Of a stretch of DNA of 62,807 nt, positions 18,895 through 60,793 are shown in pieces; position 1 is the stretch's first letter; each line of letters starts with the position of its first letter. The notes under the pieces are model-generated. The model was not told the origin of the DNA. It did not search any database and saw only the letters and a list, made by a program, of their open reading frames with translations. The stretch is from contig JAEUWC010000018.1 in NCBI GenBank assembly GCA_016786465.1, positions 1-62,807 of the forward strand, given 5' to 3'. This stretch comes from Bdellovibrionales bacterium. Its GTDB lineage: Bacteria > Bdellovibrionota > UBA1018. Both the position numbers and the translations under genes were made by a program.

Positions 18895-18922
18895 GTCTTA
18901 CGTCTCGTTTATTGTTTTGCTC

Positions 18923-18946
18923 GGGCAAGCGCATATCTGCTCGCCC
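18923..18946 (-). repeat. 24-nt hairpin repeat ahead of the fliT-like gene
   Basis: On the coding strand of the operon: arm GGGCGAGC, 8-nt loop AGATATGC, arm GCTTGCCC (8 pairs with one G-T). Same family and same orientation relative to the next gene as the copies at 20824, 20860, 60690 and 60722. Confidence 0.85.
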
Positions 18947-19384: not shown

Positions 19385-20791
19385 TTAGCCTCCTAATAGT
19401 TGAGCGACCATGTTACCTCCGCCACCGCCTCCGGGAAGGTTAGCAGCTAGGTATTGTTGTTGTTTTTGCATGTTCGCCAAAGTTCCCTGCAATCGTGAAA
19501 ACTGCTCAGTCAAAGACTTTTGCTTCTGTTCAATTCGTCTTTCCTTCTGTTCGATCTGATCGTCGATTCTTTTGATTCGTTCGCGTAGTCCGCTTTCGCG
19601 CATCGCAAGGGTTCCGCTTCCCGGGCGCGTGTACATTCCAATGACTTGTTTGATTTGGCTGGCGAAACCGTATTCGCCCGTGATCGCAGTTGAAATCCCG
19701 TCAAAGTCGGTTTCCAAAGACTTTTGGAAAACGTTTTCTTTGAACGCCAGAAGACCATTCTTTTCGAACTGAATTCCGACCTGGTTCAAGAAGATCAGCC
19801 GGTTTTCACCGGACTTCTTGTCGCGCACGTAAAAGCCTTCGTGCAAAAGGTTTCGAATTCGGTATTCGATCGATTGCAAGCTGGTGTCGCCGGCAAAAGT
19901 CGATTTTGTATCCGTTTTGTCGTCGACTTGGTTTTGCTTGTTGATGAATTCCAAGATCCCGTTGATCTGATCGACCAGTCCTTTCACCTTGCCCGAAACC
20001 TTTTGATAATCTTCGGTAATTGAAACGGTCACGACTTGATCGGGTTTGGCCTGCTTCAATTGCAGATTCACGCCCGTCATGAAGTCTTTGATCTGGTTGG
20101 ATTCCGTTTGAATCGGGAATCCATCGACGGAAATCACGCCGTTTGCGGCTTCTTTTTCCTCGTCGATGTAAATGTCGTCATAGCCATTCATGAAATAGAA
20201 TTCTGGGAAATCGACTCGCTTTCCCAAAGCTTCGTCTTTTGATGCGATCACCAGACGCCATGGTTTGGATTCGTCGGTCAAATCTTGAACCACGCTGGCC
20301 CGGATCGGAAGATTGCGGTCGCTGTTGATCTTCTGAGCGATCCCTCGAAGGCTGGAATTTTCCGATTCAATGTACACGTCCTGGGTTCCGCCATCGGGAG
20401 TCGAAACCACGATGTAGCCTGCACCCAGCGTGGCTTCGTCGGGCTTTTCAAAGGAATTGGACATGATCGAACCGCGCACGGCCATCTGTTCGACGGTTAG
20501 GTTGTATACCCCTGGCTCGGCGCGCTCTTTGTCGACGGTTACGCCGACGATGCCGGCGCCTTCGCCCAGATCGACTTTCAATTCACGAAATTTTTTGAAA
20601 TTTTCAAACTCGGCAAGGGTCTTTTCAAAACCCGCGAACTTGGATTTGAAATCTTGAAAAAGTTTGAGCTTCTGCTCTTCAAAGCCTTTACGCTTCTCGA
20701 GCTGCTTCACCGGCTGACGTTCAGCTTCGATGATCTGCTTGATCGCTGCTTGAAATTGACCCCCGCCCATGGGGTCGAAGCGAAGTCCCAA
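19385..20791 (-). CDS. fliD: Flagellar cap protein FliD
   Basis: The 468-aa protein matches FliD/HAP2: AIKQIIEAERQPVKQLEKRK at the N-terminus, the central GIVGVTVDKERAEPGVYNLTVEQMA block and the C-terminal LRERIKRIDDQIEQKERRIE coiled coil. FliD caps the growing filament and helps flagellin insert. The start is a TTG at 20789-20791, not the ATG 66 nt further up, because a perfect AGGAGG (20797-20802) lies 5 nt before it and the product then begins MGLRFDPMGGG. Between that site and the divergent gene lie two hairpin repeats. First gene of the operon running to 12973. Confidence 0.94.
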   Translation of the reverse strand: MGLRFDPMGGGQFQAAIKQIIEAERQPVKQLEKRKGFEEQKLKLFQDFKSKFAGFEKTLAEFENFKKFRELKVDLGEGAGIVGVTVDKERAEPGVYNLTVEQMAVRGSIMSNSFEKPDEATLGAGYIVVSTPDGGTQDVYIESENSSLRGIAQKINSDRNLPIRASVVQDLTDESKPWRLVIASKDEALGKRVDFPEFYFMNGYDDIYIDEEKEAANGVISVDGFPIQTESNQIKDFMTGVNLQLKQAKPDQVVTVSITEDYQKVSGKVKGLVDQINGILEFINKQNQVDDKTDTKSTFAGDTSLQSIEYRIRNLLHEGFYVRDKKSGENRLIFLNQVGIQFEKNGLLAFKENVFQKSLETDFDGISTAITGEYGFASQIKQVIGMYTRPGSGTLAMRESGLRERIKRIDDQIEQKERRIEQKQKSLTEQFSRLQGTLANMQKQQQYLAANLPGGGGGGNMVAQLLGG

Positions 20792-20823
20792 ACCGTCCTC
20801 CTGACGTTCTTTACACGACACAC

Positions 20824-20847
20824 GGGCAAGCGCATGTCTGCTAGCCC
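20824..20847 (-). repeat. 24-nt hairpin repeat in the fliD leader, copy nearest fliD
   Basis: On the fliD coding strand: arm GGGCTAGC, loop AGACATGC, arm GCTTGCCC, with one mismatch in the stem. It ends 22 nt before the Shine-Dalgarno sequence of fliD. Confidence 0.85.
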
Positions 20848-20859
20848 GACTTTGCACTC

Positions 20860-20883
20860 GGGCAAGCGCATGTCTGCTCGCCC
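20860..20883 (-). repeat. 24-nt hairpin repeat in the fliD leader, far copy
   Basis: On the fliD coding strand: arm GGGCGAGC, loop AGACATGC, arm GCTTGCCC. It is 36 nt from the first fliD-leader copy, in the same orientation. Confidence 0.85.
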
Positions 20884-21021
20884 GATCAGCTGAAAATCCT
20901 TTTTCAGCCTTCTAGACAGTTTGCCCGCTTTTTCGCGGATCGCCAACGGGCAGGATTTACCTAGTCGCCGGGGCGACCGGACCTAGTTTTTTTGTTCTTG
21001 AGCGTCTGTTTGGACTGATTC
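20884..21021. other. Divergent region with several dyads, fliD operon promoter expected
   Basis: Contains GTCGCC/GGCGAC (20964-20977) followed by seven T at 20987-20993, and TGCCCG/CGGGCA arms about 20 nt apart near 20923-20953. I tried to fit flagellar sigma28 (TAAA...GCCGATAA) and sigma54 patterns; only partial matches such as TAAA with a nearby GGCGAT are present, so no promoter is called. Confidence 0.4.
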
Positions 21022-21399
21022 ATGATTAAAGGAATGAAAAATTCAATCGTAATGGTTTTGGCTGGCCTGACGCTCGCATCGGCAGCGCACGCCAATTGGA
21101 TCTGCAAGTACAACTGTAAGCTAGACGCATCCCATGGGAATTGCGAAGGGCAGGCGTTTATCAAAATTGACGAAAAGCACGGTGTAAAGGACCTGCATTC
21201 AGCAGAAGTCATGTGCTCGGGCTGGCTTAGCCAAGATCTGACGGCCGTCGAACGCGGCGACGAATCCAAGCGAATCAAATGTTCGAACAATGTCGTAGGT
21301 GCGCCTTGGAATCCAGATTTCTTGGGCGGAAGAAACGACGATAAATCGCAGCACTGCACGCTTGCAAAGGCCTTTGACGGCTCGAAGGATTGGCCATGA
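21022..21399 (+). CDS. Small secreted cysteine-containing protein
   Basis: A 125-aa product with a signal peptide (SIVMVLAGLTLASAAHA, cleavage before NWICKY). The mature protein of about 100 residues has six cysteines (ICKYNC, GNC, VMC, IKC, QHC), enough for three disulfides, and a mixture of acidic and basic residues. I start at 21022 because GGA lies 7 nt upstream; an ATG at 21034 is also possible. Family not recognised. Its stop overlaps the start of the next gene (ATGA at 21396-21399), so the two small secreted proteins are made together. Confidence 0.78.
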   Translation: MIKGMKNSIVMVLAGLTLASAAHANWICKYNCKLDASHGNCEGQAFIKIDEKHGVKDLHSAEVMCSGWLSQDLTAVERGDESKRIKCSNNVVGAPWNPDFLGGRNDDKSQHCTLAKAFDGSKDWP

Positions 21400-21575
21400 A
21401 AAATCTTCTGATCGCACTGACTTTGGTTCTATCATTTTGCTTCACGACATCGGCCGTTGAAGCAAAAGGTCGACGCGCTTTTCGTGCTAGCTGCAAAACG
21501 GCTTGCAGCGTCCAAAAGGGCGCGAAAAAGCGTGAATGCGTCCGCCACTGCATGGCGCGCTTGAAGTCTCGTTAG
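21396..21575 (+). CDS. Secreted cationic twin-CX3C miniprotein
   Basis: The 59-aa product has a signal peptide (LLIALTLVLSFCFTTSAVEA) with likely cleavage after Ala23. The mature part is about 36 residues with 13 Lys/Arg and one Glu, net charge about +12, and exactly four cysteines at 33, 37, 48 and 52: C-X3-C, ten residues, C-X3-C. That spacing is the helical-hairpin pattern of alpha-hairpinins and similar twin CX3C peptides, in which two helices are stapled by two disulfides. A role as an antimicrobial, membrane-active or nucleic-acid-binding peptide is possible but is inference. The gene overlaps the upstream one by 4 nt. The frame could also open at a TTG two codons earlier. Confidence 0.75.
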   Translation: MKNLLIALTLVLSFCFTTSAVEAKGRRAFRASCKTACSVQKGAKKRECVRHCMARLKSR

Positions 21576-21598
21576 AAAATCGACACGCCGCTTAGAAT

Positions 21599-21620
21599 AA
21601 AGGTGCCAGGCACTTACTGG
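21599..21620. repeat. Divergent copy of the GGTGCC dyad repeat
   Basis: AAAGGTGCCAGGCACTTACT lies between the converging twin-CX3C gene and the LpoA-like gene; GTGCC and GGCAC form a 5-bp stem. The TAA stop of the leftward gene (21614-21616) is inside it, as at 12956. Confidence 0.55.
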
Positions 21621-23599
21621 ACCTGCGACATCAGACCGTTTCGAACGGTGAGGACCGCTAGGTTTCGGCCAAGCTGTCCGTCACGGAACGTGATTCGTCC
21701 GGTCACGCCGGCATGATTCTGGATTCCGCGAATCTTGTCGCGAAGTTCAGAACGGCTATTGACCGGAAAACGGGCCAGAACGGATTGAATGATTTCGGCC
21801 GCATCAAAGGCCAGCGCTTCCATCATTCCGGGGTCCGACCCAAAGGTCGATTTGTAGCGGGCTAAAAAGCGCTGAATATTGGGATCACCACTTTCTGGAA
21901 CCCAAGCGTCGACAAAATAGGATCCTTCAGCGAAGGCCTGCGCACGAGAAATCAATTCAGGAGAATGCCAGGTCGCGCTTCCCAGGTACTTCACGCCTCG
22001 GACGTCGCGGAATGCAAAAGTGGGAAGGACTTGTCCGATGACTTTCGGTTCATCTGGGATGTAAACCGCTTCATAGTCGATGATCGGGCCCAGATCGAAC
22101 ATCTTTTCATTCTTTCGGGTCTTCTTTTTAATCTGCTGTTCTTCACGAATTTTCGTCAATTCCTGGGCTTCGCGTAAACGGGCGTCCTGATAATAAAGCC
22201 CCGACATTCGATCAATCGGCTGGCGAAAATCCGTTTCGTTCGGAACGTAGCCTTCAACGCCGACGATTTTTCCGCCCATGTTTTCGACCGCATCCCAAAA
22301 TGCGTTGCTGTACTGCTGTCCGAACTTGTCTTTAGGATGAAGAATCGCAAACTTCTTCAAGCCCAACTTTTCAATTGCGTAGCGGGCCATTTCAGCTGCT
22401 TGAACCTGTGCCGTCAGCGCCGATGGCACAAAGAAATCCATGTTCGCGGTGTTTCCGGAAGTCGGTACTTGCTGGGCAAGGCTGATCAACGGAACGCCCA
22501 GTTCCTGCGCACGCTGAGCGACTTGATCGATGCCCTTTGAAGTCAGCGGTCCGATGACTCCGACGACTTTGTGATTGAAGACCAAGTTGTTCAATGCGCG
22601 AACCGCTTGTTCTGGTGTTTCACCGGCATCTTCGACGACCAAAGTGATTCGACTGTCTTGCTGATCTGGGTTGAAAATCCCAAGCGCCAGCTGAATTCCC
22701 TGAAGCGACTTTTGTCCGTATTTTGCGAATTTTCCCGACATCGGTAAAAGCGCGCCCACGGAAAGTCCCGACACTTGGGCTTGCGAACGCATCGTGCGCT
22801 GAAGGTCCAAAACGTCATTCATCTTTGGACTTTGCGGAAATCGTTCCACGAAAGTCTGAATATGCGCTTCGCCCGGGCCGATGCGGCCCTGTTGGACTTC
22901 CGCCTGGGTTAGGCGGAACAAAACCTGATCCGCCAATGGCGAATTCGCGTAGCTGTCATAAAGGTTCGAAAGGGTGTCGGCGTCGCTCATCCCCTGAAGG
23001 GCCTGATCCAATTGGGTGATGAAAAGGTTTCTGGGCTGCGTTTCATCCAAGACCAAGCTTAATTCCAGGATTTCTTTTGCAGCTTCCCCAAACTGGTTGG
23101 CCTTCAATAGGACCCGGCTTTTCAACGAATGCACTTTCACCTGCGTTTCGCGATCGATGTAATCCATCTGAATCTGCGAAAGCGTCACCTTTGCCGCGTC
23201 GATCGCGCCTGATTCGTATTCAGCCGAAGCCAGGTTGTACAAGACGTACTGGCGAAAACTGGATTGGTTTGACGACTGATGCGCCTTTTTGAAATCTTGA
23301 ATTGCGGCCTGGGGGCGACGGGTCAATAGGAAACACATCCCGCGAAGGTTGCGAACCTGGGATAGTTGCGTGCTTTTGGGATACTTCTTTTCAAAGGCAG
23401 TCAGTTTCGCGATCGCTGAATCGTACTGCGCCGAAACGAAAGCCTGATAGGCGGCTTTGTAATCGTTTCCTTCGCGTCCTTTCAAAGACGCGCCCGAATC
23501 GGGACCGCCGCCGGATTTCGATGGCGTCGTACAGGAATGTAAAGCAATGGTTGCCAGACCTAAGATGGCCAAAAGTTGCAAACGAGCTGTGAATTTCAT
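21614..23599 (-). CDS. LpoA-like lipoprotein with TPR and type 1 periplasmic-binding domains
   Basis: From the ATG at 23597-23599 the 661-aa product has a lipoprotein signal (LQLLAILGLATIALHSC). Residues about 35-260 look like helical TPR-type repeats (for example YQAFVSAQYDSAIAKLTAFE), and from about 275 the chain becomes a type 1 periplasmic-binding fold, starting VGALLPMSGKFAKYGQKSLQ and including GVIGPLTSKGIDQVAQRAQE. This two-part layout is that of LpoA, the outer-membrane activator of penicillin-binding protein 1A; many homologues are annotated only as ABC-type ligand-binding proteins. A GTG 6 codons upstream is an alternative start. It follows dnaJ by 29 nt on the same strand. Confidence 0.8.
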   Translation of the reverse strand: MKFTARLQLLAILGLATIALHSCTTPSKSGGGPDSGASLKGREGNDYKAAYQAFVSAQYDSAIAKLTAFEKKYPKSTQLSQVRNLRGMCFLLTRRPQAAIQDFKKAHQSSNQSSFRQYVLYNLASAEYESGAIDAAKVTLSQIQMDYIDRETQVKVHSLKSRVLLKANQFGEAAKEILELSLVLDETQPRNLFITQLDQALQGMSDADTLSNLYDSYANSPLADQVLFRLTQAEVQQGRIGPGEAHIQTFVERFPQSPKMNDVLDLQRTMRSQAQVSGLSVGALLPMSGKFAKYGQKSLQGIQLALGIFNPDQQDSRITLVVEDAGETPEQAVRALNNLVFNHKVVGVIGPLTSKGIDQVAQRAQELGVPLISLAQQVPTSGNTANMDFFVPSALTAQVQAAEMARYAIEKLGLKKFAILHPKDKFGQQYSNAFWDAVENMGGKIVGVEGYVPNETDFRQPIDRMSGLYYQDARLREAQELTKIREEQQIKKKTRKNEKMFDLGPIIDYEAVYIPDEPKVIGQVLPTFAFRDVRGVKYLGSATWHSPELISRAQAFAEGSYFVDAWVPESGDPNIQRFLARYKSTFGSDPGMMEALAFDAAEIIQSVLARFPVNSRSELRDKIRGIQNHAGVTGRITFRDGQLGRNLAVLTVRNGLMSQVQ

Positions 23600-60721: not shown

Positions 60722-60745
60722 GGGCGAGCAGAAATGAGCTCGCCC
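60722..60745 (+). repeat. 24-nt hairpin repeat ahead of pilB, second copy
   Basis: Arm GGGCGAGC, loop AGAAATGA, arm GCTCGCCC: a perfect 8-bp stem. It is 32 nt downstream of the first copy, and both are followed by CGGTGT-type flanks (GGTGT). The pilB ATG is 48 nt further on. Confidence 0.9.
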
Positions 60746-60793
60746 GGTGTAAAGTTGTAAGTGGTGACGTTTTCCGTCACAATAAGAAGACGA

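What the first reader, a model, noticed from the sequence alone, without database searches (positions are those of the whole stretch)
21396..21575. Secreted, highly basic twin-CX3C miniprotein
The mature 36-residue peptide has a C-X3-C, ten residues, C-X3-C pattern and net charge about +12, the cysteine spacing of helical-hairpin (alpha-hairpinin) peptides, which in plants and scorpions are antimicrobial or channel-blocking. I know of no established bacterial family of this design. It is translated together with a six-cysteine secreted protein that might be an inhibitor, carrier or co-effector.
Basis: partly seen in the sequence, partly recalled or inferred. Interest (0 to 1): 0.75.

Follow-up and report, generated by a model that had tools for sequence, protein, structure and literature searches.

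The report
Orphan bacterial disulfide-stapled helical-hairpin peptide
A bacterium carries a small gene for an exported, strongly positively charged peptide whose four cysteines and predicted shape match plant defence hairpins, but no other searched genome has it, so its function and even its use by the cell are unproven.

Summary
Window 21396-21575 (+) encodes 59 aa. After a plausible signal peptide (…SAVEA|KG) the mature peptide is KGRRAFRASCKTACSVQKGAKKRECVRHCMARLKSR: 36 aa, CX3C-X10-CX3C, net +12. Its ATG overlaps the stop of a 125-aa exported six-cysteine protein (21022-21399) as ATGA. AlphaFold2 on the mature peptide alone gives a confident helical hairpin (pLDDT 88; helices 3-14, 20-35). 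Foldseek's three best PDB matches are plant vicilin-derived alpha-hairpinins; VIA-align's best is Nigellin-1.1 (1.5 Å over all 36 residues). Scores are weak at this length. The genome lacks DsbB but has a VKOR-type oxidase, so disulfides are feasible. Neither gene has a detectable homologue in 369 genomes of the phylum, a coarse scan of 84,980 species genomes, or viral contigs; the peptide also has none in plasmids or phages. In 16 of 20 relatives with a readable junction the flanking lpoA-like and fliD genes lie 57-349 bp apart; here an 844-bp insert carries the pair, so it is lineage-specific. No congeneric genome was available, so selection could not be tested. Best reading: an exported, oxidised polycationic hairpin acting on anionic envelope surfaces, convergent with alpha-hairpinins. 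Antimicrobial or channel activity is inference.

The parts
21396..21575 (+). 59-aa ORF (P0002): precursor of the twin-CX3C basic peptide; signal peptide 21396-21464, mature 21465-21572, stop 21573-21575
   Evidence: signal cleavage VEA|KG judged by eye and by a simple rule
21022..21399 (+). 125-aa ORF (P0001): exported protein with six cysteines in the mature part, net about -2; overlaps P0002 by ATGA; alternative start ATG at 21034
   Evidence: no homologue; AlphaFold2 model uninformative, pLDDT 38.8
20771..21021 (+). leader between the fliD start and P0001: two 31-nt REP-like repeats (20819-20849, 20855-20885) found at about a dozen other places of the genome, then a G+C-rich stretch and a T-run; no sigma-70 consensus found
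19385..20770 (-). fliD-like flagellar cap gene, divergent left neighbour (name from own knowledge of the sequence, no family scan)
   Evidence: tblastn against relatives, 39-66% identity
21614..23596 (-). LpoA-like / periplasmic substrate-binding protein gene, convergent right neighbour, present in all 58 genomes (name from own knowledge of the sequence, no family scan)

Best explanation
It is a real, lineage-specific gene for an exported miniprotein. The Sec signal is removed, four cysteines are oxidised (C10-C29 and C14-C25 by analogy) and the chain forms a stapled antiparallel helical hairpin carrying 13 K/R. It most likely works by electrostatic binding to anionic envelope polymers or membranes outside the cytoplasm, in the manner of cationic alpha-hairpinins, with its co-translated six-cysteine partner acting on the same target or on the peptide. 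Shown: ORF, overlap, spacing, charge, unique insertion, lack of detectable homologues. Predicted: signal peptide, hairpin. Inferred: disulfide pairing, export, target, role of the partner.
For: Gene structure with ATGA overlap and AAGGA; twin CX3C unlikely by chance and unique among sampled exported ORFs; confident hairpin predicted without any alignment, one CX3C pair inside each helix; nearest solved folds are alpha-hairpinins: vicilin peptides 7uv1, 6o3q (TMq 0.72, 1.3 Å), 7uv2, Nigellin-1.1 Z 5.7, 1.5 Å, 36 of 36 residues; a VKOR-type oxidase (E 1.5e-20) in a 392-aa open frame of this genome; codon statistics favour the frame.
Against: No homologue anywhere searched, so no evidence of selection on the cysteines. 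Foldseek E-values of 2.4-7.9 and VIA Z below 6: a two-helix hairpin is a common arrangement. DsbB absent. No promoter consensus found. Over the mature part alone one reverse frame scores as well on codon use. No data on expression, export or activity.
Confidence: 0.42

Rival explanations
1. Resident periplasmic protein: a small basic helical hairpin like PsiF-type proteins, staying in the periplasm and binding polyanions or metals without any attack on other cells.
For: Small exported basic Cys-containing helical proteins exist in the phylum: L083 (genome G073) aligns ungapped over 31 mature residues with two of the four cysteines retained (score reached by 0.05% of shuffles). E. coli PsiF repeats have a comparable layout of C...KG..R...C.
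Against: The L083 match has E 0.014 per genome in a search of 369 genomes, so it may be chance. PF07769 (PsiF repeat) does not match this genome at all and the better PsiF alignment is equalled by about 9% of shuffles.
Confidence: 0.25
2. Unselected or very young orphan ORF: open by chance in an intergenic insert, with the cysteine pattern a coincidence.
For: No homologue for either ORF in any collection searched; the insert is absent from most relatives and carries REP-like repeats. A reverse frame scores as well as the forward frame over the mature part.
Against: ATGA overlap with a Shine-Dalgarno sequence, two consecutive ORFs each with a good signal peptide, codon use like other genes, exact hairpin spacing with a confident fold.
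Confidence: 0.2
3. Effector and inhibitor (or immunity) pair: the peptide is secreted against competitors or prey and the 125-aa protein neutralises it in the periplasm.
For: Two overlapping exported genes with opposite sign of charge (+12 and -2), lineage-specific insertion at a variable site.
Against: The partner is nearly neutral and nothing ties it to the peptide beyond position; PADLOC and PHROGs give no significant hit. No binding test was possible.
Confidence: 0.1
4. Small-Tim-like chaperone: a twin-CX3C hairpin that escorts membrane proteins across the periplasm.
For: Small Tim proteins have a strictly conserved twin CX3C and a helix-loop-helix (PMC3759932).
Against: The peptide is 36 aa and strongly basic and lacks long flanking helices; no sequence match.
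Confidence: 0.03

Closest known systems
Plant alpha-hairpinins (Nigellin-1.1, vicilin-buried peptides such as VBP-8 and the Ana o 1 leader, EcAMP1, MBP-1)
   Same: CX3C-Xn-CX3C with n in 4-20, short mature peptide behind a signal peptide, helix-loop-helix; best PDB matches of the model (motif definition PMC11591084)
   Different: Bacterial, single-copy, not a vicilin-linked or multi-module precursor, strongly basic (+12), no sequence homology detected
Scorpion kappa-KTx (CS-alpha-alpha) and cone-snail flf14/vil14 peptides
   Same: Same Cys pattern and, in those peptides, C1-C4/C2-C3 pairing (PMC7191063)
   Different: 22-27 residues, animal venoms; not compared by sequence here; nothing in this genome points to channel block
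Mitochondrial small Tim chaperones (Tim8-Tim13)
   Same: Twin CX3C helical hairpin with two intramolecular disulfides (PMC3759932)
   Different: Longer, work as oligomeric complexes in the mitochondrial intermembrane space; no sequence match here
PsiF / PsiF_repeat (PF07769)
   Same: Small exported basic protein with C...KG..R...C layout in Gram-negative bacteria
   Different: Two cysteines per repeat, two repeats; the family model does not match here

Membership tests
alpha-hairpinin (Cys-motif definition, PMC11591084) | 4C core motif CX3C-X4-20-CX3C | tested here: met
   CKTAC-SVQKGAKKRE-CVRHC, X10
alpha-hairpinin (Cys-motif definition, PMC11591084) | No 'CC' and no surplus cysteines around the core in the mature peptide | tested here: met
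   Exactly four cysteines in the 36-aa mature sequence
alpha-hairpinin (Cys-motif definition, PMC11591084) | N-terminal signal peptide | tested here: inconclusive
   Rule-based check passes with cleavage after VEA; SignalP not available
alpha-hairpinin | Two antiparallel helices joined by a loop, one CX3C in each | tested here: met
   AlphaFold2 pLDDT 88, helices 3-14 and 20-35 hold C10/C14 and C25/C29; superposes on Nigellin-1.1; prediction only
alpha-hairpinin | Disulfides C1-C4 and C2-C3 | not testable with these tools
   Needs mass spectrometry; coordinates of the model were not available
alpha-hairpinin | Common descent with plant members | tested here: inconclusive
   No significant sequence match in PDB or Pfam, but the plant members themselves share little beyond the cysteines (PMC7191063), so sequence cannot decide; convergence is assumed
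PsiF_repeat (PF07769) | Match to family model | tested here: not met
   No match in this genome at E<=1
Small Tim (twin CX3C) | Family sequence or structural match | tested here: inconclusive
   No sequence match in Pfam; not among the few chains listed by structure, which excludes nothing
DUF4787 (PF16029) | Score over curated cut-off | tested here: not met
   15.4-16.8 bits against a cut-off of 27

The most novel reading that the evidence does not exclude
A bacterial alpha-hairpinin: an independently evolved, exported, polycationic disulfide hairpin with antimicrobial or envelope-disrupting action, co-translated with a dedicated exported partner.
Probability: 0.22. Interest if true: 0.75.

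Novelty: new variant of a known kind. Interest (0 to 1): 0.42.

Why it matters
Disulfide-stapled helical hairpins are described from plants, scorpions and cone snails, and similar ones from fungi and insects. I found no paper or family that describes one in bacteria. If this one is made and folded, it would be a convergent bacterial case of a compact defence-peptide scaffold. At 36 residues it is easy to synthesise and test directly.

Tried and rejected
Homology of either ORF in relatives, class, phylum, species genomes and viral contigs, and of the peptide in plasmids and phages: nothing. The best phylum hit for the peptide (L080, E 2.9e-4) is an antisense frame of an ArsR-like regulator gene. 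The viral hit L049 covers the signal peptide only. L081 is a cytochrome-c-like protein sharing mainly the signal peptide. The 134-aa exported Cys protein at the same site in G021 (L052) is not a detectable relative of the 125-aa partner, nor is L004. PsiF membership rejected. The PHROGs 'spackle' hit (E 0.16) and the NCBIfam FxsA hit (E 0.11) look like signal-peptide noise. The partner's AlphaFold2 model is too poor to use. Viral structure library: nothing meaningful. Paralogues in the own genome: none. No Tim-family chain appeared in the structural lists, which does not exclude one.

Full report
What is there. The precursor MKNLLIALTLVLSFCFTTSAVEA|KGRRAFRASCKTACSVQKGAKKRECVRHCMARLKSR has a typical n-region, hydrophobic core and small-x-small cleavage site. 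The mature part has 13 K/R and one E (+12) and exactly four cysteines. Its start overlaps the stop of the 125-aa ORF at 21022-21399 (GGCCATGAAAA), with AAGGA six bases before the ATG, so translational coupling is likely. That ORF also starts with a signal peptide and has six cysteines in the mature part; its net charge is about -2.

Is it more than chance. Shuffling the mature residues gives the exact spacing in 0.026% and any X8-15 spacing in 0.2% of trials. I took 20 stretches of its own genome plus the window (463 kb) and 20 stretches of relatives (400 kb) and listed small ORFs with signal-peptide-like starts: 34 and 17. Only this one has a twin CX3C. A genome-wide DNA scan for the exact spacing shows no general enrichment, and none of the other places that I read as ORFs is a signal-peptide ORF. 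Codon statistics favour the frame over the precursor as a whole, though over the mature part one reverse frame scores as well. So the gene is plausible, not proven.

Relatives. Neither ORF has a detectable relative among the 57 other genomes of the class held or the 368 other genomes of the phylum searched. The same holds for the species-genome collection and viral contigs, with pattern-based scans that find close relatives only. The peptide has none in plasmids or phages. The weak hits were read and rejected. One lead remains: L083 in genome G073, a 66-aa exported basic protein that aligns ungapped over 31 mature residues and keeps two cysteines. Its E-value of 0.014 per genome in a search of 369 genomes is not significant. 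No second genome of the genus is held, and the lpoA-like neighbour is only 49% identical in the closest relative. Absence of homologues therefore shows a lineage-specific gene and cannot tell a fast-evolving gene from a meaningless ORF.

Context. The right neighbour (lpoA-like, 21614-23596, minus) is present in all 58 genomes. Where both lpoA-like and fliD lie on one fetched stretch, 16 of 20 relatives have a gap of 57-349 bp. In four the gap is 722-1225 bp and holds other genes, among them an unrelated 134-aa exported cysteine protein in G021, a 354-aa exported protein in G001 and a carbonic-anhydrase-like gene in G002. In this genome the gap is 844 bp and holds the pair. The junction looks like a site where lineages insert different genes, several of them for exported proteins. 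The leader contains two copies of a 31-nt REP-like repeat that recurs at about a dozen places of the genome. No sigma-70 consensus promoter was found.

Structure. AlphaFold2 with the mature peptide alone gave pLDDT 88 and pTM 0.55, helices 3-14 and 20-35, with the CX3C pairs C10/C14 and C25/C29 one in each helix. Foldseek against 350,542 PDB chains gives as its first three matches vicilin leader or vicilin-buried peptides, which are alpha-hairpinins (E 2.4-7.9; 6o3q TMq 0.72, 1.3 Å), then saposin D. VIA-align, a second look at Foldseek's own candidates, puts Nigellin-1.1 first (Z 5.7, 1.5 Å, all 36 residues), followed by walnut Jug r 2, VBP-8 and Luffin P1; a Tetrahymena complex IV subunit is also listed. 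E-values of such short helices cannot be significant, Z under about 13 is common for helical models, and AlphaFold2 may have learned the motif from these peptides. The consistency of the top ranks is nonetheless striking. The partner's model is unusable.

Oxidation. The genome shows no DsbB but one VKOR-domain protein in a 392-aa open frame, long enough for a fused thioredoxin-like domain, which I did not test. Disulfide formation outside the cytoplasm is therefore feasible.

Mechanism. I consider an exported polycationic hairpin that binds anionic envelope polymers or membranes most likely (0.42 for the whole statement). The gene being real and exported I would put at about 0.7, the oxidised hairpin at about 0.6, and a true attack function on other cells at about 0.2; these are judgements. 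The alternatives are a resident periplasmic binder of the PsiF type (0.25), an unselected ORF (0.2), an effector-inhibitor pair (0.1) and a small-Tim-like chaperone (0.03).

Comparison. It meets the published motif criteria, and by prediction the fold, used to call plant alpha-hairpinins (PMC11591084; PMC7191063). Disulfide pairing is not testable here and common descent is undecided by sequence. I therefore say that it is built like an alpha-hairpinin and do not file it as a member. PsiF and DUF4787 membership fail. The literature searched contains no bacterial alpha-hairpinin that I could find, within an open-access library only.

Noticed in passing
window 20771-21613; loci L051, L052, L054, L063: The lpoA-like/fliD junction is tight (57-349 bp) in 16 of 20 relatives and carries different inserted genes in the other four: it looks like an insertion hotspot for lineage-specific, often exported proteins.
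   Followed up: partly
window 20819-20885, 18920-18946, 60722-60755: 31-nt REP-like repeat CGGGCAAGCGCATGTCTGCT(A/C)GCCCGA, with about a dozen further copies in the genome.
   Followed up: partly
window 21578-21616 and G000:C21:50276-50314 (L002): A GGTGCCAGGCAC-containing element at the convergent gene ends, repeated elsewhere in the genome.
   Followed up: no
G000:C6:55457-55576 and G000:C28:109898-110017: Both contigs end in the same 12-bp tandem repeat TGCAAAGAATGC (Ala-Lys-Asn-Ala in one frame), in orientations that suggest they join through a long repeat array.
   Followed up: no
L004 (G043:C5:172333): A 123-aa exported cysteine-rich protein in the same order with sub-threshold matches to Megourin and TILa domains.
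   Followed up: partly
L092 (G000:C17:71283-71681): VKOR domain in a 392-aa open frame, apparently the genome's disulfide-forming system in place of DsbB.
   Followed up: partly
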